From: Chakrabartyella piscis
GTDB taxonomy: Bacteria; Bacillota; Clostridia; Lachnospirales; Anaerotignaceae
Assembly: GCA_030067835.1 (NCBI GenBank)
Contig: CP092441.1
Span: 1,178,001-1,242,000 of the forward strand
Length of the DNA stretch: 64,000 nucleotides
Direction: 5' to 3'
In this document: in pieces, positions 17,371 to 54,121 of the stretch
Numbering within the stretch: position 1 is the first letter of the stretch
Layout: each line of letters begins with the position of its first letter
Program-made: the position numbers and the translations under genes
Notes under the pieces: generated by a model
Database searches by the model: none
Seen by the model: the letters and a program-made list of their open reading frames with translations, nothing else
Told to the model about the DNA's origin: nothing

Positions 17371-17596
17371 GCACATCGACCTATGCGCCTGCTACGAACC
17401 CATCATTGATGTTCCCTCCTACCTTCTTGAGCAATGGCAGGATTCCGACGGAAAGGCTTCCCCTTTCGCTTGTACTGTGGCAAAAGAAATCGGTGGTACC
17501 GTGTATCAAATAGAGACAGAGTGTGGTGGTGGGGAACACTTGTCCCACAAGCTGAAGCGGCTTATTTTCTCTGATAGTGAGGTGAGTTGCAGATGA
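17342..17596 (+). CDS. Small hypothetical protein of mobile element 1
   Basis: 84 residues. A TTG start at 17342 fits best: AAGGAGGG lies about 7 bases upstream, while the internal ATG at 17354 is too far away. It overlaps the restored end of the relaxase by 29 bases. It contains Cys residues (LCACYEP, ECGGGEH) but no recognised motif. Position between relaxase and recombinase suggests a mobility accessory; no function is assigned. Confidence 0.5.
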   Translation: MNTDMNQTYEHIDLCACYEPIIDVPSYLLEQWQDSDGKASPFACTVAKEIGGTVYQIETECGGGEHLSHKLKRLIFSDSEVSCR

Positions 17597-17673
17597 CAAA
17601 TATGACAACCTATGATACAATATCGCCATGCACAACAAAATCATCCGCTGACCAACATACAAAGGAGGTTGCT

Positions 17674-19332
17674 ATGTTAGGTCAGCAAAAAATCACCATT
17701 CTCTATTGTCGCCTGAGTAATGAAGACTTGGGGGAAGGAGAATCTAACTCCATTCAAAACCAGAAAATTCTTTTGACCAGTTATGCGAAGAAACAGGGCT
17801 ATACCAATCTAAAAATCTTGGTAGATGACGGCTATACGGGGACGAATTTCAATCGTCCTGCCGTGCAGGAAGGGCTTGACTTGGTGAAGCAAGGACTTGT
17901 GAGCACTTGGATTGTCAAGGATATGAGTCGGTTTGGACGAGATTACCTCACCGTAGGGCAGTATACCGAGCTAGTTTTCCCCAGTCAGGATGTCCGTTTT
18001 ATCGCCGTCAACGATGGCGTAGACAGCATCTGTGGAGACAGCGATGGCTTTGCCGCTATCCGCAATTTGTTCAACGAGTGGTATCCCAGAGACACCAGTA
18101 AAAAAGTACGAGCTGTCTTTCAGCAAAAGGGTGCCAGTGGCAAGCACTTGGGCAGACCGCCCTACGGCTATCAGATTGACCCTTTAGACAAGGAACACTG
18201 GATTTTGGACGAAGAGGCCGCCCCCGTAGTCAAGCGAATTTTTGACCTATCCATCGCTGGAAAAGGTCCCTGTTCCATTGCACGGATACTAGAACAGGAC
18301 AAAGTGCTTACCGCCAAATCCCTCTATGCCCAGCGCAAGGGTAGACCGCTTCCCGAACGCCCCTACCATTGGATAGACCAGTCCATTGTAGGTATCTTGG
18401 AGCGAATGGACTATACTGGTTGTACCTGCAACTTTAAGTCCTATTCTAAATCATACAAGCTAAAAAAGCGTATCCCCACCCAAAAGGAAGAAATGGCTAT
18501 CTTTCCAAACACGCAAGAGGCCATTGTGGACAAGGCGCAGTGGGATAGGGTGCAGGAGCTAAGACAGCACAAGCGTCGTATGACCAAGGGCGACCGTCAG
18601 GGATTATTTTCTGGGCTACTGCGATGTGCCGACTGTGATGGAAACTTGCATTTTGCCACTAGCGCAAGCTATGGATACAAGCAAGACCACTATGTCTGTG
18701 GGCAGTACAAAAGCGGTCGAGGCACCTGCTCTGCCCACTACATCCGTGAGGAAGTTTTAAGAGCACTGGTACTAGACCGTATTCGAGCCGTCAACACATA
18801 CATCCGTCAAAACGTGGAGGGTTTCGAGGATGAGTGGATGCAGAGCTGTCGAGACCAGAGGGCGAAGAGCCAGCAGGAGCATAAGCGACAAATCGCCCAG
18901 ACCAAGAAACGTCTGGACGATATAGAAACCTTGCTGACTCGGTGCTATGAGGATATGGTTCTGGGAACCCTCAGTCGGGAGCGCTATCTAAAATTATCCG
19001 AAGGCTATGAAGTGGAGCAGGAGCAGTTGCAACTAGAGCTAGATGTGACTGAGGAATGGGTGGAACAGCAGGAGTCGCTAGAGCAAGATTTAAGGCAGTT
19101 TATAACCTTAGTGGATAAGTATATAGCTGTACCCGAACTGACACAGACCATTGTCAATGAGTACATCCACAAAATTCTGATCTATGCCCCCGAAAAGGCT
19201 GGGCGAATTCGGACACAACGGGTAAAGATTATCTTTAATTTTGTAGACGAGCTAGATATTCCTATGGTCAATCAAATTATCACCCACGAACAGCCCATCG
19301 GAACCAACGGAAAGAAGAAAAAGACGGCATGA
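17674..19332 (+). CDS. Large serine recombinase (element integrase)
   Basis: 552 residues from ATG 17674 with AAAGGAGG 5 bases upstream. The N-terminal resolvase domain has YCRLSNED with the nucleophile near Ser15 and DDGYTGTNFNRP and KDMSRFGRDY. A recombinase domain follows (KKVRAVFQQKGASGKHLGRPPYGY), then a zinc ribbon (LRCADCDGNLHF ... CGQYKSGRGTCSAHYI) and a coiled coil. This is the TnpX/TndX-like class that excises and integrates Clostridia elements at GA dinucleotides. It is the only complete recombinase in this element. Confidence 0.92.
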   Translation: MLGQQKITILYCRLSNEDLGEGESNSIQNQKILLTSYAKKQGYTNLKILVDDGYTGTNFNRPAVQEGLDLVKQGLVSTWIVKDMSRFGRDYLTVGQYTELVFPSQDVRFIAVNDGVDSICGDSDGFAAIRNLFNEWYPRDTSKKVRAVFQQKGASGKHLGRPPYGYQIDPLDKEHWILDEEAAPVVKRIFDLSIAGKGPCSIARILEQDKVLTAKSLYAQRKGRPLPERPYHWIDQSIVGILERMDYTGCTCNFKSYSKSYKLKKRIPTQKEEMAIFPNTQEAIVDKAQWDRVQELRQHKRRMTKGDRQGLFSGLLRCADCDGNLHFATSASYGYKQDHYVCGQYKSGRGTCSAHYIREEVLRALVLDRIRAVNTYIRQNVEGFEDEWMQSCRDQRAKSQQEHKRQIAQTKKRLDDIETLLTRCYEDMVLGTLSRERYLKLSEGYEVEQEQLQLELDVTEEWVEQQESLEQDLRQFITLVDKYIAVPELTQTIVNEYIHKILIYAPEKAGRIRTQRVKIIFNFVDELDIPMVNQIITHEQPIGTNGKKKKTA

Positions 19333-22221: not shown

Positions 22222-23004
22222 ATGTGTAAATGCCTTGAAATCAGCAGGAGTACCTACTATTACGAGGCTTCGTCCAAGAAAGATGATACGGAATTAGAAC
22301 AAGAAATTGAACGGATTTTTTATGAAAATAAAGAAGTCTACGGAAGTCGTAAAATGAAAAAAGAGCTGAAGAAGTTGGGCAAACAGGTTTCTAGACGCAG
22401 AATTTGCCGCATTATGAAACGTTTAGGGCTAATTTCGGTCTATACCGTTGCCAAGTTCAAACCACAAAAGCAACAATGCAATGAGTCGCCAGTAAAAAAC
22501 GAACTAGCTCGTCAATTTGATAACCAGCCTCCCAATGCAGTAATTGTTGGGGATTTGACGTATGTTCGAGTGAACTATAAATGGAACTATGTTTGTATCT
22601 TAATTGATTTATTCAACCGAGAAATCGTTGGATTTAGTGCAGGACTTCACAAAAATGCTCAGTTGGTATATGATGCTTTTGCAACAATCAAAGGGAATTT
22701 ATCTGAAATCGAGTTGTTCCATACGGATCGAGGCAGCGAGTTTAAAAACTATCTCATTGATGAAATGTTAGATGTGTTTCAGATCAAACGATCCCTCAGC
22801 ATGAAGGGCTGCCCCTATGATAATGCAGTTGCAGAAGCCAATTTCAAGGTATTCAAAACAGAATTTGTTCGAGGACGAAATTTCGTCAGTTTGGAGCAAT
22901 TGAAGTTAGAACTTGCAGACTATGTGCATTGGTTCAATAACATACGTTTGCATGGCTCTTTGGATTATAGAACACCAGCCGAATATCGGGTACTGACCTT
23001 ATAA
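22222..23004 (+). CDS. IS3-family transposase OrfB (copy 1, DDE integrase)
   Basis: 260 residues in the -1 frame relative to OrfA, with the frame open back into OrfA. It has the HTH_21 region (YGSRKMKKELKKLGKQVSRRRICRIMKRLGL) and an rve integrase core with acidic residues in VGDLTYV, HTDRGSEF and AVAEANF. All catalytic positions are present, so the copy may be active. Confidence 0.92.
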   Translation: MCKCLEISRSTYYYEASSKKDDTELEQEIERIFYENKEVYGSRKMKKELKKLGKQVSRRRICRIMKRLGLISVYTVAKFKPQKQQCNESPVKNELARQFDNQPPNAVIVGDLTYVRVNYKWNYVCILIDLFNREIVGFSAGLHKNAQLVYDAFATIKGNLSEIELFHTDRGSEFKNYLIDEMLDVFQIKRSLSMKGCPYDNAVAEANFKVFKTEFVRGRNFVSLEQLKLELADYVHWFNNIRLHGSLDYRTPAEYRVLTL

Positions 23005-27992: not shown

Positions 27993-28715
27993 ATGCGGGA
28001 TAAAATATATGAATGTTGCAAAGAGTTGAGATTAAGTGCAACATTTGCAGACAATGCAGTTACACTTTCAGGGGACACACATCAAGAGTATTTAGTGAAA
28101 GTATTACAGGCAGAGCAAGAATATCGAAATAATAAAAGAAAAGAATTACATTTAAAACAAGCAGGGTTTGACGGGTTAAAGACCTTTGAGAATTATGATT
28201 TTGAAAAAATCGTTATCCCTAGTGCATTGAATACGGAAAATCTTAAAACAGCTGCATTTTTGGAACAAAAACAAAACCTGATATTGTACGGAAGAAATGG
28301 TGCAGGCAAGAGTCATATGGCAACAGCCATAGGAGTAGAAGCCTGTATACAAGGTAAAAAAGTAAAGTTTTACAAGACAGCAACACTTGTAAATGAGTTA
28401 TTGGATGCAAAAGCAGATGGATCCTTAACTAGAATGCTTAAGAGATTAAGTAAAATAGATTTATTAATATGCGATGAATGGGGATATCTCCCCTTCGGAG
28501 CTGAAGGTTCGCAATTATTGTTTCAAGTAATTGCAGATTGCTATGAGAAAAGAAGTTTAATCATTACAACGAATATCGAGTTCAGTAAATGGAATAGCAT
28601 CTTCTATGACGAACAATTAACCGCTGCACTCATAGACCGTTTGGTCCATCACAGTCACTTAATTGTGTTCGATAGAGAGAGCTGGAGATTCGAACATTCG
28701 TTGATGAAAATATAG
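27993..28715 (+). CDS. istB: IS21-family helper ATPase IstB
   Basis: 240 residues; ATG 27993 is chosen because AAAGGGG lies 9 bases before it, although the frame also has a TTG at 27987. AAA+ ATPase with Walker A LILYGRNGAGKSHMATAIG, Walker B LLICDEWGYLPF and sensor ITTNIEFSKW, all conserved in IstB/DnaC-like helpers that select targets for IstA. Complete. Confidence 0.93.
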   Translation: MRDKIYECCKELRLSATFADNAVTLSGDTHQEYLVKVLQAEQEYRNNKRKELHLKQAGFDGLKTFENYDFEKIVIPSALNTENLKTAAFLEQKQNLILYGRNGAGKSHMATAIGVEACIQGKKVKFYKTATLVNELLDAKADGSLTRMLKRLSKIDLLICDEWGYLPFGAEGSQLLFQVIADCYEKRSLIITTNIEFSKWNSIFYDEQLTAALIDRLVHHSHLIVFDRESWRFEHSLMKI

Positions 28716-28817
28716 TAACTATTAACCCAATATAGGTGTTACACTTTTGCATTGCATTTTGTTACACTTTGGGGTTGCAAAATACACTCACTGGTTTGCG
28801 TATACAAAAAATATACA

Positions 28818-28844
28818 GAAAACACTCTGTTTCAGGGTGTTTTC
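28818..28844 (+). terminator. Hairpin terminator right of IS21
   Basis: GAAAACAC-tctgtttcagg-GTGTTTTC followed by TTG. It may belong to the sequence that IS21 entered. Confidence 0.5.
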
Positions 28845-29399
28845 TTGCGTTTTACAACATATTATACTAAATTTATGAGAAATTATGCGATAGCATATTG
28901 CGACTGATAACAAAATGATAACATAATTTTTGTTGCCACACAATTTCAAAGCATCATAAACAATGATAACAAGCGGTTTTTTGCATAAATCACTGAGTAC
29001 AACTTGAGTGCAGTGGCTACAAATTGGCTACAAAATATTATGATAACAGGTTGCTTCCTTGGCGAGATTCGTGTAGATTGTACCTGATTTGGATCAGATT
29101 GAGTCGGGGTGGTTTGTGCAGCTATTGATAGAAATATATCGTTACTCCATTCGACAATACTAATCTTTGCCTTTTCGTAAAACGTTATAATGTAGGCGAA
29201 TAATATGGTTATGACTTACTATATTTTCTATGGAAGGAAATCTGTATGATTATATGTAGGAGGTTTGTTTTCGGCGGAGGTGAGTTTCGAAGAATTACGG
29301 GTTTTTAATGGTTCGTATTGCAAAAGTAGAAATGATGTGATACAGTGGTCTATAAGTTAAGTTAGATTAACTCATATTGAAATGGGGCGGGGGATGATT
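28845..29399. other. Gene-free region before the IclR gene
   Basis: No coding frame is convincing. GATAAC words recur at about 28907, 28918, 28963 and 29041, and CTGAGTACAACTTGAGTGCA at about 28992 resembles the CTGAGTACACTTTGAGTACA at 26224. It looks like leftover element-end or attachment DNA. The last 60 bases form the leader of the IclR gene. Confidence 0.45.
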
Positions 29400-30134
29400 A
29401 TGTCGGAAAAAGCAGAGGTTGTATTGAAGAATAAAATGGTCAGAAAGATTGTTGAGGTGCTAAACTGTATTGCGAAACATGATAACGGAGCAACTTGTTC
29501 AGAAATTGTAAAAGAGACAAAACTCCCAAAATCAACAGTTTTCGATATATTACAAGCACTATATGATACAGAATGTGTTTATTATAAAGATGAAAAAATT
29601 AAAAGTTATGCCATTGGTTCAACAATTTATATTTTGGGGAGTACTTATTCTCTCAATTCTACTTTGGTTAATTTGAGCAATGAATATATTAAAGATGTGG
29701 CAGAAAAAATCAATCAACCGGTATTGCTTTCCAAGTTTGCAATGGATAGAGCTGTTTACATTAATCGATATGATGCGGAGAAATCAATTATTAAAGCACC
29801 AGATGTTGGAAAATATGATGATGATTTGAAATCTGCAGTTGGGAAAGTGTTTTTGGCATTTATTGAAGAAGATTTATGTGGTCGTTTGGATATTGATGTT
29901 CCTAAAGAGGAGCTTAGAATGATTCAAAAAAATCGTTACTTGATGACGTATGATGAGGAATATGAACATACATATACGATTGCGGTCCCGATTTTTAACT
30001 TTGAAAGTAAGATATGTGGGGTGATTAGCACCATTGGGATACACATTTTGGGGCAAAATCACTACGAAGTGTTAGAAATGATTATGACTATGGCTAAGGC
30101 AATGTCGAAAAGCCTTAGATATAAAGAAGTTTGA
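29400..30134 (+). CDS. IclR-family transcriptional regulator
   Basis: 244 residues; ATG 29400 is chosen because GGGGG sits 6 bases before it, rather than the in-frame ATG at 29382. N-terminal winged helix (VEVLNCIAKHDNGATCSEIVKETKLPKSTVFDILQAL) and C-terminal IclR effector domain (VNLSNEYIKDVAEKINQPVLLSKF, SAVGKVFLAF, YTIAVPIFNFESKICGVISTIG). It lies upstream of the M24/TRAP operon, whose promoter has a clear palindrome, so it probably controls that operon in response to the imported compound. Confidence 0.88.
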   Translation: MSEKAEVVLKNKMVRKIVEVLNCIAKHDNGATCSEIVKETKLPKSTVFDILQALYDTECVYYKDEKIKSYAIGSTIYILGSTYSLNSTLVNLSNEYIKDVAEKINQPVLLSKFAMDRAVYINRYDAEKSIIKAPDVGKYDDDLKSAVGKVFLAFIEEDLCGRLDIDVPKEELRMIQKNRYLMTYDEEYEHTYTIAVPIFNFESKICGVISTIGIHILGQNHYEVLEMIMTMAKAMSKSLRYKEV

Positions 30135-30150
30135 TAAATTAATGTATATA

Positions 30151-30196
30151 AAAGCGATGCCTGTAAGTCTTTGGATTTATAGGCATCGCTTTTATT
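30151..30196 (+). terminator. Terminator of the IclR gene
   Basis: AAAGCGATGCCT and AGGCATCGCTTT form a perfect 12-base stem, followed by TATT. Confidence 0.88.
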
Positions 30197-30373
30197 AGTT
30201 GAAATGATTTGGTATATAAAAATGGGGGGGCGAGGTAACAGGTTTTGGATAAAAGTATATCACATATTGAAAAAAATAAACCAAATAAAATGCAATAATT
30301 ATAGAAATTCTGCTATTAATTTGTGAAAAAATAAAAAATAAATTGAAAAGAAGGAAAATATAACAAAAAAAGA

Positions 30374-30446
30374 TTGACAATCGGTGATTAAAAAGATATA
30401 ATCTCCATATAGTTCAATATATCGGACGACTTCCGAAATATCGGAA
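30374..30446 (+). promoter_or_regulatory. Promoter and IclR-type operator of the M24/TRAP operon
   Basis: TTGACA (30374-30379) and TATAAT (30397-30402) with exact 17-base spacing, a near-consensus promoter. Downstream of it TTCCGAAATATCGGAA (30431-30446) is a palindrome with 6-base perfect arms, and the half-site TCGGA repeats at 30422. Binding there would block transcription just past the start point. Confidence 0.82.
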
Positions 30447-30466
30447 TACAAATGGAGGAGTATAAA

Positions 30467-31615
30467 ATGACGGGATTTTCGGCTTTACCTATTAAAGTGT
30501 TTCAAAAAAGAGTTGAAGTATTGGTGGATAAAATCAAAGTGGAAGGCAAAGATGGATTTTTTATATTTTCTGATGAATATAGAACTGGTTATGCTACATA
30601 CATCTCTGATTTTAAACCAATCAATATGATTGAAGAGTCACCACAAGGCGTTTACATTGATGCAAAAGGAAAAGTTACTTTGTTCTTGGGTGCTATCAAT
30701 GCCCAAGCTGCTAAATCGGTTTCTTGGATTGAAGACATCAGATCGATTGAAATGATTGGAGAGTTTTTTGCGGATGAAGTGAACAAAGCTGGAAAAAAAT
30801 TAAATATCGGAATTTCTGGCGAAGATCTGCTTCCGACAAAATATTATAGAATCATAGAAAAAGCTTTAGCAGATAATGATTATGTAAATTGGGATGAAAT
30901 ATTACATGACATGAGAATGGTTAAATGTGATGAAGAAATCGAATTGCTTGCAAAAGCATGTCAAATTGGAGATGAATCCCTTAGAATTGCCATTAAAGAA
31001 CTTGCAACAGATAATGAAATCACAGAAATTGGTCTTTGCGCTGTATCTGAATATACAATGAAACAAATGGGTGGAGACTTAAGTTGTGCAACAGTTCTTG
31101 CTTCTGGTGAATATACAAGAAATCCAACATGGAGACCAACCCATAAGGTGATTGAACAAGGAGAAGCGATTTTGATTGATGTAGCTCCATCTTATAATGG
31201 TTATGCTACAGATGTTGCCATTACAATTTTCAGAGGTAAGGCGACGGATGAACAACAAAAAATTATCGATACTGCTCGAGATGTGGTGATTCGAACAGTT
31301 GATGCTTTGAAACCGGGCGAAAAGGGTTCTAGAATTTATGATGTGTTTTTAGAGGAATCAATTAAGCTAGGCGTAGATCATTTATTTAAGCCATATGCGG
31401 TAGGTTTTCGTGCGGTGGGTCACAGCATTGGACTTGATTGTGTTGAACGACCCAATTTAGGACCGGAATCAGACTTTACATTGGTAAAAGGAATGACTTT
31501 GGCACTAAAATACGATTTGCATGGATTTGACTGGGGTGGACTTAGAATTGAATCTGTAATGGTTGTAAAGGAAGATAAGTGTGAATTGTTAAATAGAATT
31601 CTTTATGAAATCTAA
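30467..31615 (+). CDS. M24-fold hydrolase 1 (Xaa-Pro peptidase/creatinase superfamily)
   Basis: 382 residues from ATG 30467; GGAGGAG lies 6 bases upstream, while the open frame's first ATG (30452) is part of that site. An N-terminal creatinase-like domain (residues 1-140) is followed by a pita-bread domain. Of the five metal ligands of M24 peptidases I see Asp in LIDVAP, Asp in YATDVA, His in VGHSIGLD and Glu in LRIESV, but the fourth, normally in TIEPG, is replaced (ALKYDLH). Creatinase, a member of this fold, works without metal, so this may be an amidinohydrolase or other C-N hydrolase rather than a peptidase. First gene of the TRAP operon. Confidence 0.8.
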   Translation: MTGFSALPIKVFQKRVEVLVDKIKVEGKDGFFIFSDEYRTGYATYISDFKPINMIEESPQGVYIDAKGKVTLFLGAINAQAAKSVSWIEDIRSIEMIGEFFADEVNKAGKKLNIGISGEDLLPTKYYRIIEKALADNDYVNWDEILHDMRMVKCDEEIELLAKACQIGDESLRIAIKELATDNEITEIGLCAVSEYTMKQMGGDLSCATVLASGEYTRNPTWRPTHKVIEQGEAILIDVAPSYNGYATDVAITIFRGKATDEQQKIIDTARDVVIRTVDALKPGEKGSRIYDVFLEESIKLGVDHLFKPYAVGFRAVGHSIGLDCVERPNLGPESDFTLVKGMTLALKYDLHGFDWGGLRIESVMVVKEDKCELLNRILYEI

Positions 31616-31698
31616 TGTTTATTATGGCTTGAAGTAGGCTGGTTGCCTGCAAGATATAAAATAAAAGGTCAATGTAAGTGAGAGGGAGGAATTTGATT

Positions 31699-32745
31699 AT
31701 GAAGAAATTTTTGGCTATGATTTTGGTAACATCCATGATGGTTTCCTTGGCAGCATGTTCTTCAGGTAGTGGAAGCTCATCTGAAAGCGCATCTTCATCT
31801 ACAGATGCAGAAACAACTATTTCTGATGAAACTTATGAACTCAGATTTGCTATTGTTTCTAGTGCAACTCATACACACAATAAATCAATTGTTGAGTGGG
31901 CAGAGGGTGTTTATGAAGATACGAATGGTAGACTTAGCATTACACTTTTAGATAGTGGTCAGTTGGGTGGAGAGCGTGACTATGTAGAAAGTTTGCAACT
32001 TGGCTCTTTGGACATGATGCAAGTTTCTGCTTCTGTAGTTGGAAACTTCTTGCCAGACTATAACATTATGTCTCTTCCATATTTATTTGAAACATATGAT
32101 GATATTGAGAACATCACTTCTGGGCCTATTGGCGAAAATTTGTTTGAACAGCTTGAAGGCATTGGGATTGTTGGATTAACTTGGTTCTCTAATGGATTTA
32201 GATCTGTATATTCCAATACACCAGATGTAACAACTCCGGCAGAATTGAACGGTGTTAAAATCCGAGTTATGGAAAGTACTGTTATGATTAATTCTTTGAA
32301 TGCGATGGGGGCATCTGCTGTTCCAATGTCATATTCCGAAGTATATACATCTATCCAACAAGGTGTTCTCGATGGTGCCGAAAATGCACTTGGGAATATT
32401 TTGTCTGATAAATTCTATGAAGTTTGCAAAGAGCTTACTTTGACAGAACATTTTGCGACTCCTGGTGTTGTTGCAATTAGCCAAAAATCATTTAATGCTC
32501 TTCCAGCAGATTTGCAAGAATATTTGATTGAAGCTTCTAAAGAATTAGGCGAAATTGAAATGGAAATGGACAAAGTGGATCAAGCAGCAGCTTTGGATGA
32601 ATTGGTAGCATTTGGTATGAATGTAACTGAAGTAGATAAAGAAAGTTTTGTTACAGCTGGTCAATCAATTTATGCTAGCTCTTGTGCAGATGTGTCAGAT
32701 GAAGTAAAGGGATTGCTCACATCTGAACTAGGAATTGAATTTTGA
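31699..32745 (+). CDS. dctP: TRAP transporter substrate-binding lipoprotein (DctP family)
   Basis: 348 residues from ATG 31699 after GAGGGAGG. Signal peptide with lipobox LAAC, Cys20, then a Ser-rich linker, so it is a lipoprotein on the outer face of the membrane. DctP-family features include HTHNKSIVEWAEGVYEDTNGRLSI, QLGGERDYVESLQLGSLDMMQVS, FSNGFRSVYS and the conserved LNGVKIRVMES with its ligand-binding Arg. TRAP binding proteins of this type bind organic acids or zwitterions through a carboxylate. Ligand unknown. Confidence 0.92.
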   Translation: MKKFLAMILVTSMMVSLAACSSGSGSSSESASSSTDAETTISDETYELRFAIVSSATHTHNKSIVEWAEGVYEDTNGRLSITLLDSGQLGGERDYVESLQLGSLDMMQVSASVVGNFLPDYNIMSLPYLFETYDDIENITSGPIGENLFEQLEGIGIVGLTWFSNGFRSVYSNTPDVTTPAELNGVKIRVMESTVMINSLNAMGASAVPMSYSEVYTSIQQGVLDGAENALGNILSDKFYEVCKELTLTEHFATPGVVAISQKSFNALPADLQEYLIEASKELGEIEMEMDKVDQAAALDELVAFGMNVTEVDKESFVTAGQSIYASSCADVSDEVKGLLTSELGIEF

Positions 32746-32754
32746 GGATAATTT

Positions 32755-33234
32755 ATGAAAAAATTAGGGGAAATATTTAATGGACTGCTAAATATAACGG
32801 TGATAATCTTTGTCATAGGTATGGTGATTGTAACTTTTTTGCAAGTTATCTTTAGATTTGCATTAAACAATCCGCTATCTTGGTCAGAGGAGCTTGCAAG
32901 ATGCTTATTTGTGTGGGTTACCTTTTTAGGTGCAGCTATATGTGCCAGAGAAAATGCTCACATTGGTATGGATTATTTAGTGAGTAAGCTGCCCCAAAAG
33001 CTTGCAAAGGGTATTGGCATATTGGGGTTTGTTTTAATCATTATAGTGTGTATTGCTATTGCATTTACTTCTTTTGATATTATTGCAATTAACATGAATC
33101 AAAAGTCAGCAGCCTTAAAGCTTAATATGGGTATGGTTTATACGGCAATTCCAATAGGATTCGCGTATATGATAGTATACTATATGAGGCATTTAATAAC
33201 CATAATAAAATCAAAAGAAGCGGGTGAAGAGTAA
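32755..33234 (+). CDS. dctQ: TRAP transporter small membrane subunit (DctQ)
   Basis: 159 residues with four hydrophobic helices and the DctQ signature NNPLSWSEELARCLFVWVTFLGAAICARENAHIGMDYL. It forms the membrane complex with DctM. It follows dctP by 9 bases and its stop overlaps the dctM start (TAATG). Confidence 0.92.
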   Translation: MKKLGEIFNGLLNITVIIFVIGMVIVTFLQVIFRFALNNPLSWSEELARCLFVWVTFLGAAICARENAHIGMDYLVSKLPQKLAKGIGILGFVLIIIVCIAIAFTSFDIIAINMNQKSAALKLNMGMVYTAIPIGFAYMIVYYMRHLITIIKSKEAGEE

Positions 33235-34508
33235 TGTTACCAGTTTTGTTTATAGTGTTTTTGGTGCTTGTGGCACTTAACTTGCCTATTGCTTTTGCAA
33301 TGCTTGTTGCATCGCTTGCGGCTCTCCTTGTTGGGGATTTGCCTCTGGCAATGGTGACAACAAGGCTATTTGTTCAAGTGGATTCCTTTTCTTTGATGGC
33401 AATACCATTCTTTATTTTTGCAGGGGACATCATGAACTCTGGTGGTATTACAAAAAGGATTGTAGCATTGGCGCAAACTTTGGTAGGACACATTAAAGGT
33501 GGTCTTGCACATGTTAATATTGTATCCAGCATATTTTTTGCGGGGATATCGGGTTCGGCAACAGCCGATACTTCAGCGCTTGGATCAATGTTGATTCCGA
33601 TTATGGAAGAAGATGGTTATCCTCCTGAATTTTGTGTCGCTGTAACTGCAGCGTCCTCCACGATAGGACCAATCATTCCGCCAAGTATTATGATGGTTAT
33701 GTATGCTGTTATTGCAAGTGAGTCGGTTGCTATGCTATTTATCGGTGGTTTGGTTCCGGGGATTTTGATTGGATTGACACAAATGTTTATGGCATATAAG
33801 ATATCCAAAAAACATGGATATGGTTCTCAGGGTAAATTTAGCTTTGGTGCTTTTGTGAATGCATTCAAGAGTTCAATTCTTGCGATAATTATGCCGCTTA
33901 TCATCTTGGGAGGTATCTTATCGGGTATATTCACAGCAACAGAAGCTGGAGTGATTGCATGTGTATATGCAATTATTGTAGGTGTATTTGTATATAAGGA
34001 AGTTACATTCAAAGAGCTTCCAGTGATTTTTTACAAATCTGCAAAAATTACAGCCCAAGCAATGTTTATTGTAGCCTCCGCTGCTATGTTTAGCTGGATT
34101 TTAGCGTGGACAGGTTTCCCATCGATGGTATTAGAGCTTTTATTATCCATTAGCACAAATCCAACAGTGGTATTACTATTAATTATTGGATTTATTCTGG
34201 TTTTGGGATTATTTGTTGAAGGGACACCAGTGCTGATTATTTTTGCACCAGTATTTGTTCCTGTAGTTCAAAGCTTGGGGATTTCCCTTGTGTTGTTTGG
34301 TGTACTGTTTGTAATGTCAGTTTTGGTTGGATCAATTACTCCGCCGGTTGGCGTGCTTTTATACTTGGGATCTAGCATTGCGGGTATTCCAGTTGCAAAA
34401 GCGAGCAAAGCTATTTGGCCATTTGTTTTAACGATTGTTGTTGTAATACTTTTATGTGTATTTGTACCACAAGTTATTACATTCTTGCCAGAACTTCTTT
34501 ATGGATAA
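33234..34508 (+). CDS. dctM: TRAP transporter large permease (DctM)
   Basis: 424 residues with about twelve membrane helices; typical DctM segments are AIPFFIFAGDIMNSGGITKRIV, SSIFFAGISGSATADTSALGSMLIP, and FCVAVTAASSTIGPIIPPSIMMV. It couples sodium entry to substrate import from the DctP protein. The start overlaps dctQ by one base. Confidence 0.94.
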   Translation: MLPVLFIVFLVLVALNLPIAFAMLVASLAALLVGDLPLAMVTTRLFVQVDSFSLMAIPFFIFAGDIMNSGGITKRIVALAQTLVGHIKGGLAHVNIVSSIFFAGISGSATADTSALGSMLIPIMEEDGYPPEFCVAVTAASSTIGPIIPPSIMMVMYAVIASESVAMLFIGGLVPGILIGLTQMFMAYKISKKHGYGSQGKFSFGAFVNAFKSSILAIIMPLIILGGILSGIFTATEAGVIACVYAIIVGVFVYKEVTFKELPVIFYKSAKITAQAMFIVASAAMFSWILAWTGFPSMVLELLLSISTNPTVVLLLIIGFILVLGLFVEGTPVLIIFAPVFVPVVQSLGISLVLFGVLFVMSVLVGSITPPVGVLLYLGSSIAGIPVAKASKAIWPFVLTIVVVILLCVFVPQVITFLPELLYG

Positions 34509-34516
34509 AAAATGAT

Positions 34517-34553
34517 AATATAACTCGCTATTTTATAGCGAGTTATATTTATA
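34517..34553 (+). terminator. Terminator/attenuator after dctM
   Basis: AATATAACTCGCTA and TAGCGAGTTATATT form a 14-base perfect stem followed by TATAAA rather than a pure T run. It lies 16 bases before the next M24 gene and probably lowers, rather than ends, downstream transcription. Confidence 0.75.
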
Positions 34554-34568
34554 AATGGGGGTTTTTGT

Positions 34569-35636
34569 ATGGTAGATACATTGAATAAAATAGAATACTT
34601 AAAAGAGTTGGTAAAAAAAAGAAATAAAATGGGTGTGGTTATCAAATCTTTTGCCAATTTATCTTGGTTGGGAATTAGAAGACCGCATGTGCTATCTGTT
34701 TCGGAATCTACGATAGTAAAACTCATAATAACTCTTGAAGGTGTGTTTTTGATTGCCAATAATATAGAGATGGATAGGTTGCTCAAGGAGGAATTGGACG
34801 AAGCGCTTGTTAAAATTGTGACCCCGATTACATTTATGTGGTATGAAGATTATAAATTCCCTTTTGTAGATCAAGAATTGTTGATAGATGAGGTTGAAAT
34901 CGAGGCTGAAATAAAACTTCGCCGTATGATTTTAACCGAAAAGGAGATGCTGAAGGCGTCGGTATTGGGGGCTGATTTGGCAGAGATTGCAGAAGGTGTT
35001 CTTCCGTACATTAAAAAAGGGATGACGGAGAGAGATATAAGTGGGATGCTTTATAAATTGTGTGTAGAGCGTTCTATAGAAGCGGGATTGGCTCTTTGTG
35101 CCAGCAGCAAGCGGGCATTGCTATATCGACATCCCATAGCAACAAGTGAAATAATTGATGACTTGGTAATGATTATTTTGACAGTTCGTCGTGATGGAAT
35201 GTATTCGTGTTTATCTCGCATGGTCGCTTTGGATCAGGTGGATGAAGAAGTATTGAGAAAAAGAGATGCGGTATTGGCTGTTGAATGTGCATATATGAAG
35301 TATTCGAAAGAAGGAATGAATATAAGAGATGTTTTTTATAAAGGTCAAGAAGTTTATAGAGAATATGGATTTTCTGATGAATGGAAAAATCACCACCAAG
35401 GTGGTATTACTGGATATTTGAGCCGAGAAGATAAAATGACGGGGCGTTCGGATATTATAATTAAGAATGGAATGAGCTTTTCGTACAATCCGACAGTTCC
35501 AGCTTACAAGGCGGAGGATACATTCTACTTAAAAGAGAATAAGCCGATTCTTACAACAGAAACAACCAATCTTCCGACGGTAAGGGTGGAATTTGAAGGT
35601 GAAATTTATCAAAGACCGGACATAATAAGGATGTAA
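34569..35636 (+). CDS. M24-fold hydrolase 2
   Basis: 355 residues from ATG 34569. It has the creatinase-type N-terminal domain and a pita-bread domain with KGMTERDISGMLYKLCVERSIE, a RHPIAT segment, NHHQGGITGYLSRE and KNGMSFSYNPTVPAYKAEDTF. HHQGG-GY is typical of one M24 subgroup, but the usual acidic metal ligands are mostly gone (ILTVRRDGMYSCLS in place of the Asp-Asp segment). It is therefore unlikely to be a standard metallopeptidase. Its place after the TRAP genes suggests action on the imported compound or on the product of M24 enzyme 1. Confidence 0.7.
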   Translation: MVDTLNKIEYLKELVKKRNKMGVVIKSFANLSWLGIRRPHVLSVSESTIVKLIITLEGVFLIANNIEMDRLLKEELDEALVKIVTPITFMWYEDYKFPFVDQELLIDEVEIEAEIKLRRMILTEKEMLKASVLGADLAEIAEGVLPYIKKGMTERDISGMLYKLCVERSIEAGLALCASSKRALLYRHPIATSEIIDDLVMIILTVRRDGMYSCLSRMVALDQVDEEVLRKRDAVLAVECAYMKYSKEGMNIRDVFYKGQEVYREYGFSDEWKNHHQGGITGYLSREDKMTGRSDIIIKNGMSFSYNPTVPAYKAEDTFYLKENKPILTTETTNLPTVRVEFEGEIYQRPDIIRM

Positions 35637-35646
35637 AGGTGGCGAA

Positions 35647-36752
35647 ATGGGGTATACAGGTATAGCAAAAGAAAAATTTGAAGAACGCATTTACAGAATA
35701 CGCAAGTGGATAACAGAAGAAAATTTAGATGGATTTTTCATATATAATGAAGAATTTCGACCGAGCCATAACTTGTATATTTCTGATTATATGCCAGTAC
35801 AAAATATTGAGTTTTCCCCTAATGTGATTTACTTGAATCAAGAAAGCGTCATCTTGTTTTTGGGGAAGCCAATGGGCAAATGGCAAAATCTGTGACTCAT
35901 ATAAAAGATATACGTCATATAGAAAGTATTGTGGACTTTCTTCAAGAAAAAAAGGGGGAAACTCTGGGATTATGTGGTGTGGAGAAATTGCCGGGATTTT
36001 ATAGAAAGCATTTAGAACAATTAGAGCAATTTGTAATTTTTCGTGACTGCGAGTTGTTTTTTGCAGGTTTACGACTGTATAAAGATGATGAAGAAATAGA
36101 AAAAATCATTACAGCTGCCTTTTATGCGAACAATATAATGCAAGAGGTATCGGGCAATATTAAAGAAGGAATTACGACGGAGAGAGAGATTGCAAACAAG
36201 GCGGAATATCTCATCAAAACAAAAGGTCTGGATGTGGGATATGATACTATAGTATCCGGAGGGTTGAACACAAGGGAGAATACCCATAGACCTACCGATG
36301 ACCATATTCATGAGGTGGTTACAGTTAATATTGTTCCTAGATACAAGGGGTATTCCTCGTTTTACACCATAACCAAAGGGCTGTCCAATTCGGAGTCAAA
36401 AAAGGTATGTGAAAGTTCTAAAAAAGTGATTTCTTATATGTTGGATAATTTGAAGGTGGGGGATAGCACAGAAAGAATTTTTGAACTGTACCAAGAAAAG
36501 ACTAGGGAATTTGGCTTGCTCTCTCATTTATTGCCGTTGTATAATAAAGAAGAATTTGTTGGGTGTAGTACAGGACTCGAACCAGTGGAATATCCGTATC
36601 TGTGCAAAGATAGTCATTTGATACTGAAAAAAGGGATGGTTTTATCATTAAAATATTATTTGGCGGGATTTTCTTGGGGAGATGTTAAGTTTGAATTTAA
36701 TGTTTTGATTGATGATAAGCCTATTCTGTTAAATGATATTTATATGGATTAG
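35647..36752 (+). pseudogene. M24-fold hydrolase 3, paralogue of hydrolase 1 (single-base frameshift)
   Basis: From ATG 35647 the first 75 residues align with hydrolase 1 (DGFFIYNEEFRPSHNLYISDYMPVQNIE). The frame breaks in GGGG at 35862-35865; with one more G it reads LFLGEANGQMAKSVTHIKDI, matching LFLGAINAQAAKSVSWIEDI of hydrolase 1, and stays open to 36752, about 368 residues. Metal positions are degraded: the Asp-Asp segment is VNIVPRYKGYSSFY, the His segment is GCSTGLE, and the Glu segment is SLKYYL. Only the last Glu (KFEFN) persists. It may be a non-catalytic partner or an enzyme with different chemistry, if the frameshift is not real. Confidence 0.75.
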
Positions 36753-36893
36753 GGGAATTGATTTCTAGGGAATTCTGCTTGTTTGGATATATGGCATTAG
36801 GTCGTATGTTGAAAAATGAGAGAAATATTAAATATGAAGCTAGAGGATAAAAAGAACGGATATACAATGGAAAAATAGATTTTTAATTTAATT

Positions 36894-36927
36894 TGGGATG
36901 AGGCCGCTTTTCGGTCTCATCCCTTTG
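36894..36927 (+). terminator. Terminator of the M24/TRAP operon
   Basis: GGGATGAGgCCG-CTTTT-CGGtCTCATCCC followed by TTTG. Between 36753 and here no gene is seen. Confidence 0.88.
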
Positions 36928-37231
36928 TTATTGATAAAATATGAATACAGATTGACCAACTTTAAATTGTTTTGAAATTGCTTGATATAAAAATGCTACC
37001 TCAAAGCGAAGCCGGGATACTGATATTTATTGAGTTTTGCATAGCTGTCTTTTTTCGAGAAGATCATACAAGAACATCGGTCTTTATCAAGTCAGTGGAA
37101 TGGTGATTACTAGGAACTTTTTGAAGTGACTATGGCAGATATGGTTTCGTTATCGGTTTCCTTCGAGGAAATGAAACTTATTAAAATGTAATGAATGAGG
37201 TCGATACAAACGGAGAACCACTGTCAAATAA

Positions 37232-50912: not shown

Positions 50913-51566
50913 TTATTTAATAAAATATCTACCAGTTAAACTATATAGACCATTTAAGATATTTGCTTCAATTGCATCTGCAAATTCTTTTATATCGCGT
51001 TTTTCCAATGCCTCAATAATTCGAGTGTGTTCATCCAAAGAACTTTTTATACGTGCATCGGACATGCTATTTTTGATACCCAGCATAAAAGCACGATCGT
51101 ATAGTGGATTGATTACTGCGGTTACTTCATAGTTTTTGTTTTTTTCTAAAATATATTTATGGAAAAAAATATCTGCTTCCATAAATGCAACAGAATCTTT
51201 ACGTTCAATGGCAGAATATTGTATCTGTATGGAATCTTTTAAAATTCTAATGTCTTCTGCTGTGATTAGATTTATAACTCTCTTTGCATTATATGATTCT
51301 ATAGCAGCGCGTAATTCATAAATACCACAAGCTGCTTCTATAGAAATGGTATTGACAATAGCCCCTTGCTTTGGAAGGATTGTCAAAAACTTTTCGTGTT
51401 CTAGTCTTTGGCACGCATTGGTAACGGGGGTACGACTGATTTGAAGGGATTCAGCCATAGCACTGATGCTAATTGCTTGACCTTGTTTCAATTCGCCATT
51501 TAAAATCATACGTTTAATGGATTCATATGATTCAATGCTCAGATTTTGTTTTTCATTTATATTCAT
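50913..51566 (-). CDS. GntR-family regulator (FadR/FCD type)
   Basis: 217 residues; ATG 51566 is preferred, with GAGG 11 bases upstream, over a GTG at 51578 that overlaps the site. Winged helix (SIKRMILNGELKQGQAISISAMAESLQISRTPVTNACQRLE) followed by an all-helical FCD effector domain (ELRAAIESYNAKRVI, FHKYILEKNKNYEV, HTRIIEALEKRDIKEFADAIEANI) with His residues that usually bind a metal and a carboxylic acid ligand. Two near-identical palindromes lie in front of this gene and of the divergent catabolic operon, so it probably represses both. Confidence 0.87.
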   Translation of the reverse strand: MNINEKQNLSIESYESIKRMILNGELKQGQAISISAMAESLQISRTPVTNACQRLEHEKFLTILPKQGAIVNTISIEAACGIYELRAAIESYNAKRVINLITAEDIRILKDSIQIQYSAIERKDSVAFMEADIFFHKYILEKNKNYEVTAVINPLYDRAFMLGIKNSMSDARIKSSLDEHTRIIEALEKRDIKEFADAIEANILNGLYSLTGRYFIK

Positions 51567-51617
51567 TTTTTGTTGCACCTCAATTCATTTGCATAGGGAT
51601 AAATAAAATATAATTCA

Positions 51618-51648
51618 TTATATCAGAGTCAATTCTTGCGTGCAAGAT
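51618..51648 (-). promoter_or_regulatory. GntR gene promoter and operator 1
   Basis: On the minus strand TTGCAC (51641-51646) and TATAAT (51618-51623) are 17 bases apart. TCTTGCGTGCAAGA (51635-51648) is a perfect palindrome that covers the -35 box, which fits autorepression. Confidence 0.75.
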
Positions 51649-51708
51649 GTATTTATAAAGAATATATACAAAGTTTATAAAAAAATCTAAAAAAAGCTAA
51701 AAATACTA

Positions 51709-51764
51709 TTGACAATGTGGAATAATTTGCATATACTTAACTTGTATTCTACTTGCATGTAAGA
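51709..51764 (+). promoter_or_regulatory. Catabolic operon promoter and operator 2
   Basis: TTGACA (51709-51714) and TATACT (51732-51737) with exact 17-base spacing. TACTTGCATGTAAGA (51750-51764), very like operator 1, lies just past the expected start of transcription, so a bound GntR protein would block the polymerase. Confidence 0.8.
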
Positions 51765-51820
51765 TGAATGCGAATTAAGTATATATAGAATGCCAGATCG
51801 TTTATGTGAGGAGGAAATGT

Positions 51821-52782
51821 ATGCACGAGATACCTAAAGCAGCCAATGTTCTTTTAACAACATGTTCAAATTGTCAAAAAGAAGAAAAGATTTTATTTGT
51901 AACAGACCCTACAAGCTATGAGATTGCGAAGCTTGTATATGATGCAGCAAAAGATTTTCCAAATAAAACAATGGTTATGATGGATGAACGTTCCATGCAT
52001 GGTGAAGATGCTACAAAGTTGGTGTCAGCAGCAATGTTAGAAGCAGATGTTATTTTTGGGCAACTAAATTTTCTTTATATCATTCAAAAGCGAGAAAAGA
52101 AGCAGTTGCCAAAGGTGCTCGATTTGTAAATATGGCAGATTATGATTTGAGTATGATGTATGCTGGTGGTTTATATGCGGATTTTGCTGCAGCAAGAGCA
52201 ACATGTAAAAGAATTGCAGATGTTGAAGATGGTGCAAAAACATTGAATATCACCTGCGAAAATGGTTCACACTTCACATGTTCTATTGCAGGTAGAAAAC
52301 CATTGCCACAATATGGACGAAGTGTTGAAAAAGGGGTTGCATCTTCTCCACCAGATGTGGAATGTGCAACTTGTGCAGTTGAAGGGACGGGTTATGGTGT
52401 AGTTTATATAGATGGAAGTATTCCACATCCAAAGCTTGGATTGATTCATGATGAAATCAAAATCACAATTGAAGCAAGCAAGATTACAAAAATTGAAGGA
52501 GGAAAACAAGCTGAAATTTTTGCTGAAGTGATGGAATCCTTTGGAGATGAGAATGTTTACTGTGTTGGTGAAATTGGAATTGGTTTGAATCCTATGTGTG
52601 AGCTCAATGGAAGAATGCTTGAAGACGAAGGTTGTGGTGGTACTGTACATTTTGGTTGTGGTGACAACGTTGGTTTTGGAGGTACCGTCAGTTGTCCAAT
52701 ACATATTGACTTAATTTTTAAAAATCCAACATTGACTGTGGATGATACTGTTGTTTTGGAGGCAGGAATCGTTAAGGTTTGA
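51821..52782 (+). pseudogene. M29/NicX-like metallo-hydrolase (single-base frameshift)
   Basis: ATG 51821 follows GAGGAGG. After ADVIFGQ the frame breaks near 52063; adding one A (CAA to CAAA) gives QTKFSLYHSKARKEAVAKGAR and links to the frame that runs to 52782, about 320 residues in all. The C-terminal half has SPPDVE, GEIGIGLNPMCELNGRMLEDEG, GTVHFGCGDNVGFGG and HIDLIF, with the Glu, His, His and Asp expected for the metal site of thermophilic aminopeptidases (M29) and NicX-type 2,5-dihydroxypyridine dioxygenases. Substrate unknown; the linked PLP enzyme and acid transporters suggest an amino-acid derivative. Confidence 0.78.
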
Positions 52783-52840
52783 TGATTATATTACACTATA
52801 ATATAATTGACGATGAGATGAGAAAGTTGAGGTACTACGT

Positions 52841-54121
52841 ATGAATGAAACTAAAGGTATTTTATTTGACAGTGTATTGGTACAAGAATTGAAAAATCAA
52901 TTTTTTATGCCAAATGAAGATCCAAGAGATGGGGAAAGACTTTTCTTTGATAACTCAGGCGGGTCTTTGCGTTTGCAAAAAGCAGTTGAGGTGAAAGCGG
53001 ATTTGGAACGCTACCCAGATTGTCCCGAAAGAGACCATGAAAGAGGTTTGACATTAAAGGCGTATGTACAAGAAGGTACAAAAGAACTTTTGGATATTGT
53101 TTTCAATGCAAAAAGCGGTGCTTTGATGTCCGAATTGACAGCTTCTCAATGTATGTTCCAAATTGTTGATTTAATTATGGACAACGTAGAAGGTACCAAT
53201 GCAGTTGTTTCCGTTTTGGAACATCCGTCTGCATTTGATGCTATGCAATTCCATTGCAAAAAACATGGTCGTGAATTGCGAGTTGCACAAGCAAATAAAG
53301 AAACTGGCAGAATTGATCCAGATGAAGTTGCAAGATTGGTGGATCAAAATACCTGTTTGGTTAGTATTATGTCTGCTTCCAATATTTCTGGTAGTGTTAT
53401 GGATATGGAAGGAATTGTAAAAGCTGTTAGAGCAATAAAACCTGATATTTACATCATCAGCGATGCGGTGCAACATGCACCACATATGATTATGGATGTA
53501 GAAACACTTGGTTTAGATGCTATGAATTTTGCACCATATAAATTCTTCAGTGTTCGTGGTTGTGGATTTGCATATGTATCTGATCGAGTTGCTCATATGC
53601 CTCATCATAAAATCATTGCAAAAGATCCAAAAGTATTTGAATTGGGGACACCAGCTCCTGGTAATTTTGCAGCAATGATGGCAGTTGTTGATTATGTATG
53701 TTCTATCGGCAAAAAATTTATTGCAAGCGAAAATAGAAAAGAATTGTATTATGAAGGAATGAAAAGAATTCATTTGCAAGAAAGAGCGCTTTTGCACTAT
53801 ATGTTGGAAGGAACAAAAGAAATTCCTGGTTTGCGTCATATTCCTGGCGTTGCAATCAGTGCAGATACTGATTCAGTAGAAGGTCGAGATTTGATTGCGG
53901 GTATTCGTATTGAAGGAATGGATGTCATTGAATTGGGCGAAGAATATCAAAGACGAGGTGTCACTACTGCTGCACGTGCAGCAACCAGTATTTATTCTAA
54001 GCGTATTGTTGAAGCTTTGGGGGCTGACAAAGGTTTGGTTCGTGTATCACCAATGCACTGTCATGGCACAGAAGATATCGATAAATTCTTGAATATTACG
54101 AAAGAAATTGCAACTAGATAA
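52841..54121 (+). CDS. Class V aminotransferase-fold PLP enzyme
   Basis: 426 residues from ATG 52841 (GAGG 8 bases upstream). The fold type I pattern is clear: SELTASQCMFQIVDLI, SVLEHPSAFDAM, SIMSASNISGSV, ISDAVQHAPH with the Asp and His that hold the cofactor, and NFAPYKFFSVRGCGFAYVS with the PLP Lys. It is related to cysteine desulfurases, kynureninases and isopenicillin-N epimerases; a Cys persulfide loop typical of desulfurases is not obvious. In this operon it may transaminate or cleave the product of the M29-like enzyme. Confidence 0.83.
   Translation: MNETKGILFDSVLVQELKNQFFMPNEDPRDGERLFFDNSGGSLRLQKAVEVKADLERYPDCPERDHERGLTLKAYVQEGTKELLDIVFNAKSGALMSELTASQCMFQIVDLIMDNVEGTNAVVSVLEHPSAFDAMQFHCKKHGRELRVAQANKETGRIDPDEVARLVDQNTCLVSIMSASNISGSVMDMEGIVKAVRAIKPDIYIISDAVQHAPHMIMDVETLGLDAMNFAPYKFFSVRGCGFAYVSDRVAHMPHHKIIAKDPKVFELGTPAPGNFAAMMAVVDYVCSIGKKFIASENRKELYYEGMKRIHLQERALLHYMLEGTKEIPGLRHIPGVAISADTDSVEGRDLIAGIRIEGMDVIELGEEYQRRGVTTAARAATSIYSKRIVEALGADKGLVRVSPMHCHGTEDIDKFLNITKEIATR

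What the first reader, a model, noticed from the sequence alone, without database searches (positions are those of the whole stretch)
30467..36752. TRAP transporter flanked by three M24-fold proteins with decayed metal sites
Hydrolase 1 lost one of five metal ligands, hydrolase 2 most, hydrolase 3 four. Loss is graded but the folds and gene order persist, so new function is likelier than decay. Creatinase shows that this fold can cleave C-N bonds without metal, and ectoine hydrolase and a DMSP lyase belong to the same fold. The locus may import and open a guanidino, cyclic or quaternary-amine compound, and the degenerate copies could form a mixed complex.
Basis: partly seen in the sequence, partly recalled or inferred. 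Interest (0 to 1): 0.8.

Follow-up and report, generated by a model that had tools for sequence, protein, structure and literature searches.

The report
Lysine-swapped M24 enzymes in sugar-acid locus
Three proteins with the fold of proline-cutting peptidases lie beside an importer that likely takes up a sugar acid; their metal-binding residues are replaced, one by a lysine kept in relatives from several phyla, so they are predicted to process sugar acids or sugars rather than cut peptides.

Summary
IclR – M24#1 – DctP/Q/M – M24#2 – M24#3 spans 29382-36752, and the five M24 metal ligands are altered as described: one lost in #1, four in #2, four in #3. The "graded decay" picture does not hold. 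M24#1 belongs to an old clade in which the fourth ligand (Glu) became Lys (87 of 91 aligned rows) while the other four stay. M24#3 is an offshoot of that clade and lost more; its frame is interrupted here, but intact relatives exist. M24#2 belongs to a separate, widespread family. Context points to sugar acids, not guanidino or quaternary amines. Of 18 Lys-type loci, nine hold a TRAP system close by and nine hold uronate/hexarate-type genes, among them a Leisingera plasmid with galactarate dehydratase. The nearest solved DctP proteins are, from recall, sugar-acid binders. UxaC occurs in 11 of 12 carrier genomes tested against 19 of 62 others. M24#2's relatives that I viewed mostly lie among sugar genes, unlike ordinary M24 genes of the same genomes. 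Best reading: a likely horizontally acquired cassette that imports a hexuronate-like compound, which a one-metal, lysine-bearing M24 enzyme converts. Substrate and reaction are untested.

The parts
29382..30134 (+). IclR-family regulator
   Evidence: Pfam IclR_C 41.8 bits (cut-off 24) and HTH_IclR 34 (22); IclR genes also end the Lys-type M24 + TRAP cassettes L019 and L020 (30 and 33% identity)
30452..31615 (+). M24#1 (H1), Lys-type M24-fold protein: D243, D254, H324, K353, E367
31678..32745 (+). DctP solute-binding lipoprotein of the TRAP system
   Evidence: TIGR00787 225.5 bits (cut-off 175.05); 46-55% identical to six DctPs next to Lys-type M24 genes elsewhere, at most 33% to the seven of eleven own-genome paralogues compared
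32755..33234 (+). DctQ small TRAP permease
   Evidence: Pfam DctQ 123.4 bits
33234..34508 (+). DctM large TRAP permease
   Evidence: TIGR00786 421.2 bits (cut-off 268.45)
34569..35636 (+). M24#2 (H2), metal-ligand-poor M24-fold protein with RHPI, HHQGG and NP..K.ED motifs
35647..35895 (+). M24#3 (H3), N-terminal domain, in a frame other than the rest; ATG follows an AAAGGTGG ribosome-site-like stretch
   Evidence: 80% identical to residues 1-74 of P0126; sequence
35880..36752 (+). M24#3 (H3), catalytic-domain part: N150, F161, C229, K258, E272
   Evidence: Pfam 74.2 bits; 84% identical to residues 79-368 of P0126; ligand columns

Best explanation
The locus is likely a horizontally acquired cassette with a TRAP system that likely imports a hexuronate-like sugar acid or its conjugate, and M24#1, an M24-fold protein with lysine in place of one metal ligand, is predicted to convert that compound into one the cell's hexuronate pathway can use. 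Shown: the gene order, the ligand changes, their conservation, the tree, the recurrence with TRAP and uronate/hexarate genes, and absence from sampled relatives. Inferred: M24#1 holds one metal (D243, D254, E367), and K353 puts a positive charge where the second metal sat, next to H324. That would be an acid/base pair rather than the Glu-assisted two-metal water of peptidases. Inferred: M24#2 works on sugars without metal, as its sugar-operon relatives would. Inferred: M24#3, an offshoot of the M24#1 clade that keeps the N-terminal domain motif, is a partner subunit or regulator of M24#1, and is split in this genome. Substrate class about 0.5 likely; the one-metal Lys site about 0.4; the partner role of M24#3 about 0.25.
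For: Lys at the fourth ligand in 87 of 91 rows with the other four ligands kept, in 47 of 49 rows of a second, overlapping set and in both plasmid relatives, against Glu in 12 of 12 and 29 of 30 ordinary M24 proteins (the odd one has Asp). One Lys-type clade, H1 plus H3, SH-aLRT 98. Of 18 Lys-type loci, 9 hold a TRAP system within about one gene, and 9 hold UxaA/GarD-, UxaB-, UxaE- or IolB-type genes. Among these a Leisingera plasmid has the M24 gene between DctM and DctP, followed by galactarate dehydratase (802.4 bits, cut-off 730.85), tartronate-semialdehyde reductase (TIGR01505, 390.9 against 340.75) and a GarL/HpaI-like aldolase (under its cut-offs). Desulfobacterales L024 has UxaE (197.7 against 27.1). 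Bacillus L031 has tagaturonate reductase (632.9 against 359) and IolB (247.1 against 205). The window's DctP is 46-55% identical to the Lys-type-linked DctPs of L019-L021, L024, L025 and L149, but at most 33% to the seven own paralogues compared. Best PDB hits of DctP are 4x8r, 4p47, 4p9k, 4n8y; their sugar-acid ligands are recalled. A review passage says that TRAP binding proteins took D-glucuronate/D-galacturonate and six-carbon aldonic acids (PMC5812351). UxaC in 11 of 12 carrier genomes tested against 19 of 62 others, Fisher p = 1.1e-4, and in this genome but in 0 of 16 sampled family members. M24#2-like genes sit among sugar kinases, aldolases, transaldolase, sugar transporters and the Thermus xylAB operon, while neighbours of ordinary M24 genes of the same genomes include Adk, SecY, EF-P and dehydroquinase.
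Against: No uronate enzyme was found in window 20001-50000, and several M24 + TRAP cassettes (L019, L020, L021, L025) have none in the stretch held. The nine uronate-type loci are not independent: seven are Bacillales, six of them in one clade of the tree (the seventh, L150, was not in it), so about three independent contexts; L027 and L029 show IolB alone; L024, L031 and L149 supplied the queries themselves; and the stretches searched differ in length from those of the M24#2 control. The farthest Lys-type loci (L026, L028, L029) have DctPs only 30-33% identical, so substrates may differ. Ligands of the solved DctPs are recalled, and several bind pantoate or erythronate rather than uronate. 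The UxaC control was hand-picked, genome sizes differ, relatedness is not corrected for, not every carrier genome was tested, and against the 14 well-known control genomes (7 of 14) p is only 0.036. Gloeothece's M24#2 relative is not in a clear sugar operon. No coordinates were available to check the Lys geometry, and the loop around H324 is modelled poorly.
Confidence: 0.45

Rival explanations
1. M24#1 is a hydrolase that would split an amide- or ester-linked uronate conjugate (for example an amino-acid uronamide), with the lysine helping to hold the carboxylate; the released uronate enters the UxaC pathway.
For: Fold of prolidase, EutD and creatinase, all hydrolases; no other sugar-acid enzyme recognised beside the TRAP system in L019, L020, L021 and L025; UxaC elsewhere in 11 of 12 carriers tested.
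Against: The Glu replaced by Lys is kept in 12 of 12 and 29 of 30 ordinary M24 proteins aligned and, from recall, is needed in aminopeptidase P and used in creatinase.
Confidence: 0.25
2. One reading: the locus imports and opens a guanidino, cyclic or quaternary-amine compound by metal-free chemistry like creatinase or EutD.
Against: M24#1 keeps four metal ligands. Ectoine-hydrolase models score far under their cut-offs. The creatinase Glu that meets the guanidinium (recalled) would be Lys or Asn. Neighbours of several relatives are sugar-acid genes.
Confidence: 0.07
3. M24#2 and M24#3 are decaying, functionless copies carried on a mobile region; only M24#1 and the TRAP system matter.
For: M24#3 is split between two frames here, has lost a further ligand (His to Cys) together with P0126, and its nearest hit is the least alike of the three (84% against 88% and 96%). 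The region is full of mobile genes.
Against: M24#2 is open, models at pLDDT 94.1 and keeps its family's motifs. M24#3 is intact in relatives at 42-49% identity, with conserved N, F, K and E columns. The split may be an assembly error beside a short run of T and G.
Confidence: 0.2
4. Ordinary peptide scavenging: the TRAP system brings in a peptide-like acid and M24#1 cuts it.
For: Some source names call the relatives Xaa-Pro dipeptidase.
Against: One of five ligands is replaced throughout the clade; the PepQ model scores 106.7 bits against a cut-off of 630; contexts are sugar-related.
Confidence: 0.05

Closest known systems
Archaeal/bacterial prolidase PepQ and aminopeptidase P (MEROPS M24)
   Different: Five-ligand two-metal site not complete in any of the three; sugar-acid or sugar gene contexts instead of housekeeping ones
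Ectoine hydrolase EutD/DoeA
   Different: 16% identity; model scores 34.6 and 36.4 bits against cut-offs of 613 and 575
Creatinase
   Different: M24#1 keeps D, D, H and E; the creatinase active-site Glu position (recalled) is Lys or Asn here
DMSP lyase DddP
   Different: Not among the sequence matches listed (best 60 shown); DddP keeps the metal ligands (recalled)
Sugar-acid TRAP transporters (glucuronate/galacturonate/aldonate SBPs surveyed by Vetting et al. 2015, seen through a passage in PMC5812351)
   Same: Nearest solved DctPs (ligands recalled); TRAP genes adjoin galactarate genes in Leisingera
   Different: The ligand of this DctP is untested; 46-55% identity only within the Lys-type-linked group

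Membership tests
M24 / creatinase-prolidase fold | Pfam PF00557 over its cut-off and full-length fold match | tested here: met
M24 metallopeptidase (prolidase, aminopeptidase P) | All five metal ligands D, D, H, E, E | tested here: not met
   #1 keeps four, #2 one, #3 one; 12 of 12 and 29 of 30 ordinary M24 proteins keep five
M24 metallopeptidase (prolidase, aminopeptidase P) | Metal-dependent Xaa-Pro cleavage | not testable with these tools
   needs purified protein
Ectoine hydrolase DoeA/EutD | NCBIfam TIGR02993 / NF038259 over cut-off | tested here: not met
   34.6 against 613 and 36.4 against 575 for #1; no match listed for #2 and #3
Creatinase | Active-site His, Glu, Glu of creatinase (recalled) at the matching columns | tested here: inconclusive
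   The fourth-ligand column is Lys, Asn, Lys; that creatinase keeps Glu there is recalled, no creatinase was in my alignment
DMSP lyase DddP | DddP-specific metal ligands and sequence | tested here: inconclusive
Sugar-acid TRAP system | DctP/DctQ/DctM of the TRAP type | tested here: met
   TIGR00787 225.5 against 175.05; TIGR00786 421.2 against 268.45; Pfam DctQ 123.4
Sugar-acid TRAP system | Binds a uronate or aldonate | tested here: inconclusive
   Nearest solved chains 4x8r, 4p47, 4p9k, 4n8y; their ligands are recalled, and none was docked or measured

The most novel reading that the evidence does not exclude
The peptidase fold has given rise to sugar-acid enzymes: a Lys-type M24 clade in which lysine stands in for the second metal ion and works with histidine and one remaining metal as an acid/base pair on hexuronates (isomerase, epimerase or lyase chemistry, functionally like the enolase superfamily), with a metal-free offshoot as its partner and a second, independent metal-free M24 clade serving sugar operons in bacteria and archaea.
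Probability: 0.25. Interest if true: 0.85.

Novelty: new variant of a known kind. Interest (0 to 1): 0.62.

Why it matters
Proteins of these two clades carry names such as Xaa-Pro dipeptidase, Xaa-Pro peptidase family or M24 family metallopeptidase in public records, yet they lack the full peptidase metal site and mostly sit in sugar or sugar-acid loci. If the reading holds, a sizeable set of database names is wrong. The fold gains a new kind of chemistry with a metal-to-lysine swap that can be tested directly, and the missing step of a sugar-acid uptake route gets a candidate enzyme. The Leisingera plasmid locus, with transporter, M24 gene and galactarate genes together, gives a ready system for the test.

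Tried and rejected
Single-sequence scan of genome contigs with M24#1 found nothing; the alignment A1 then found 16 loci. Viral contigs gave none. Rfam found no RNA element in 28700-37200 at gathering scores. I looked for a missing UxaC as a sign that M24#1 replaces uronate isomerase; UxaC is present in 11 of the 12 carrier genomes tested including this one, so that idea was dropped. UxaE is absent from this genome at E <= 0.001. At E <= 1e-40 A1 also finds ordinary prolidase-like proteins; of the 30 other loci fetched, 29 keep D, D, H, E, E and L124 has Asp at the fourth ligand. Print searches that combined M24 with TRAP, creatinase, galacturonate, altronate, uronate, sugar operons or metal-ligand terms listed no paper on Lys-type M24 proteins in the open-access library (listings only); most subscription papers are not held, so novelty in print is not shown. 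Creatinase residue numbers were sought in print without result.
Full report
What is there. On the + strand: an IclR regulator (29382-30134), M24#1 (30452-31615), DctP (31678-32745), DctQ (32755-33234), DctM (33234-34508), M24#2 (34569-35636) and M24#3. M24#3 is in two pieces: an N-terminal domain at 35647-35895 and the rest at 35880-36752 in another frame. The offset lies beside a short run of T and G (sequence), a place where long-read assemblies often err, so a real break and an assembly error cannot be told apart. Full-length relatives exist: P0126-P0129 and P0131, 368-373 aa.

The ligands. Aligned with 12 ordinary M24 proteins from genomes of the same order, which all keep D, D, H, E, E, M24#1 has D, D, H, K, E; M24#2 has I (or a neighbour), C, G, N, E; and M24#3 has N, F, C, K, E. 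The 12 were chosen from 53 PF00557 places in 11 genomes; methionine aminopeptidases and 600-residue forms were left out. A second control: of the 30 other loci fetched by the M24#1 profile keep all five; L124 has Asp at the fourth ligand and seems to have lost both Asp ligands. In M24#2 the two His of HHQGG do not fill the His-ligand column; by the prolidase alignment that column is the last Gly.

Not one decay series. For M24#1, 94 homologues were found. I aligned 90 of them plus the query, leaving out P0078, P0089, P0090 and P0092. The fourth ligand is Lys in 87 of 91, Glu in the two lowest-scoring hits, Thr in one and a gap in one; each of the other four ligands is kept in 90 of 91, the remaining row being a gap. 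M24#2-type rows (42): the fourth ligand is Asn in 38, Phe in 3, Tyr in 1; the His column is Gly in 41 and Ala in 1; the last Glu is kept in 39; the first Asp is never kept, the second in one row. M24#3-type rows (7): N, F, K and E in all, His in five and Cys in two, the window and P0126. A tree of 105 of the 114 rows (quick method, SH-aLRT only; the window's own M24#3 was among the nine left out and is placed through P0126) puts all M24#2-type rows on one side of a branch (100), M24#3-type rows in one clade (100) inside the M24#1 clade, and M24#1 plus M24#3 together (98), apart from P0093, which has Glu and falls with the ordinary proteins. It has long branches and the root is arbitrary. So Glu-to-Lys most simply happened once, M24#3 is a later offshoot of that clade, and M24#2 is a separate old lineage.

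Fold. M24#1 (pLDDT 85.5, with residues 318-326 around H324 under 50) and M24#2 (94.1) model as the full two-domain fold. Best scores for M24#1 are EutD/DoeA 33.0, prolidase 32.5 and creatinase 32.4, which tie; for M24#2, prolidases and a dipeptidase at 31.7-31.3. The fold does not separate peptidase, creatinase and ectoine hydrolase.

Gene set. H1, H2 and H3 homologues share exact contig lengths in eight cases (for example 61865, 213164, 13691 with all three, and 14891 with the locus tags CVV00_09385 and CVV00_09390), which points to conserved linkage. The set is absent from close kin sampled: among the other 97 relatives the best M24#2 match is 27% identical, and no M24#1 match at E <= 1e-60 other than the window's genome appears among 398, 392 and 391 genomes of phylum, order and class samples, which overlap. 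The region is rich in mobile genes: Mob_Pre, serine recombinase, IS21-type, MobL, integrases (IS21 naming is mine).

Lys-type M24 elsewhere. Sixteen chromosomal or MAG loci and two plasmid loci all keep Lys. A TRAP system lies within about one gene in 9 of 18: L019, L020, L021, L024, L025, L026, L028, L029, L149 (in L026 an unknown gene and in L028 and L029 a LacI gene lies between). L022 and L023 are on short contigs or contig ends. UxaA/GarD-, UxaB-, UxaE- or IolB-type genes occur in 9 of 18: L024, L027, L029-L033, L149, L150 (L027 and L029 show IolB alone; L024, L031 and L149 supplied the queries; stretches held run from 3.7 to 21 kb). The same queries hit 13 M24#2-type loci (11-17 kb) once, a GarR-like match in L100, apart from ABC, LacI and iron-ADH genes. 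Seven of the nine are Bacillales, so the independent contexts are about three. The clearest case is Leisingera thetidis plasmid pBMJM1_2: LacI, DctQ, DctM, M24, DctP, oxidoreductase, GarL/HpaI-like aldolase, tartronate-semialdehyde reductase, galactarate dehydratase and an SMP-30 protein; the oxidoreductase, the aldolase and a glycerate-kinase-like gene nearby stay under their NCBIfam cut-offs.

Transporter. The window's DctP is 47-55% identical to DctPs of L019-L021, L024 and L025, 46% to that of Leisingera, and at most 33% to the seven own-genome paralogues compared, of eleven. DctPs of L026, L028 and L029 are at 30-33%, so they may differ in ligand. Best PDB matches are 4x8r, 4p47, 4p9k, 4n8y, 4pdh, 4pdd, 4p1l, 4x04; I recall D-glucuronate, D-galacturonate, D-erythronate and pantoate as ligands of these and near entries, and no call gave them. 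A review passage says that TRAP binding proteins of the 2015 survey took D-glucuronate/D-galacturonate and six-carbon aldonic acids (PMC5812351, passages seen).

UxaC. I tested 12 carrier genomes: this one and those of L019, L020, L024-L028, L030-L032 and L034; those of L021-L023 and L033 and the two plasmid hosts were not tested, and L029 lies in the genome of L026. PF02614 is found in 11 of the 12 (missing in that of L030), in 19 of 62 others not known to carry the gene, and in 0 of 16 of these from the window's own family; Fisher p = 1.1e-4, and 0.036 against the 7 of 14 well-known control genomes. The 62 were picked by hand, carriers tend to have larger genomes, and relatedness is not corrected for.

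M24#2 family. In the order sample 12 of 392 genomes, this one included, have a match at E <= 1e-40. Neighbours within about 1.5 kb (32 proteins of 12 of 13 loci; L047, a near copy, and some small ORFs left out) include zinc ADH (3), FGGY kinases (2), iron ADH (2), transaldolase (2), ROK (2), transketolase (2), L-fucose isomerase C domain (2), aldolase, ketohexokinase and a sugar-type permease, beside AraC and PocR regulators (first 25 of 40 families shown). Forty-seven neighbours of ordinary M24 genes in the same genomes (near copies and some small ORFs left out) include adenylate kinase (4), shikimate kinase (4), SecY (3), EF-P (3), dehydroquinase (2) and ribosomal proteins, with single carbohydrate genes (polysaccharide deacetylase, GH127) (25 of 58 families shown). 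Of 37 plasmid records with an M24#2 relative I viewed six: two Thermus with xylF-xylA-xylB-M24, Deinococcus with L-fucose isomerase (98), Halomicrobium with sugar-binding-domain proteins (97), Pantoea with ROK, a sugar porter and oxidoreductases (96); Gloeothece is an exception (94).

Mechanism. In ordinary M24 enzymes two metals are held by D, D, H, E, E, and the fourth ligand, Glu, binds one metal and helps activate water (recalled). Losing it to Lys while keeping D, D, H and E would leave one metal and put a positive charge in the other place. With H324 nearby that makes an acid/base pair suited to sugar acids, but the reaction is not shown. The rival is hydrolysis of a uronate conjugate. 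M24#3, from the same clade and still carrying the N-terminal motif (DEFRPS..L.ISDY.P in relatives) that in this fold reaches the partner subunit (recalled for creatinase), could be a partner of M24#1.

Verdict. Observation confirmed; interpretation partly supported; a new variant of a known fold family with a sugar-acid link that can be tested directly.

Noticed in passing
window 17587-19332 and L148 10-1665 (G000:C1, about 1966010-1967665): Serine recombinase ORFs whose first 70 shown residues are the same lie in the window and near the genome's UxaC + TRAP locus, so both uronate-type loci may be mobile cargo.
   Followed up: partly
window 50913-56614: A second catabolic-looking cargo: GntR, a 216-aa protein without Pfam or NCBIfam match, a class V aminotransferase-like protein, an SDF symporter and an auxin-carrier-like protein (GntR and auxin-carrier naming is mine).
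   Followed up: partly
window 22222-23004 and 62980-63762: The same 260-aa IS3-type transposase ORF (my naming) occurs twice with identical translation.
   Followed up: no
L088 4702-7057 (G760): A tandem pair of M24-fold genes beside a sugar ABC system and an FGGY-like kinase (my reading); His and the last Glu kept, both Asp lost.
   Followed up: partly
L089 4702-6647 (G773): An M24-fold gene followed by a protein that looks like a creatininase (my reading of the N-terminus) in a sugar-transport locus.
   Followed up: no
L124 (G801:C11:35445-36575): Another M24-fold protein with Asp at the fourth ligand and altered first ligands, 25% identical to M24#1.
   Followed up: no
L026 11193-12485: A 430-aa protein without Pfam or NCBIfam match lies between a Lys-type M24 gene and a TRAP system in Ammoniphilus.
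   Followed up: no
G000 whole genome: Twelve DctP-family binding proteins in one 3.4-Mb genome.
   Followed up: no
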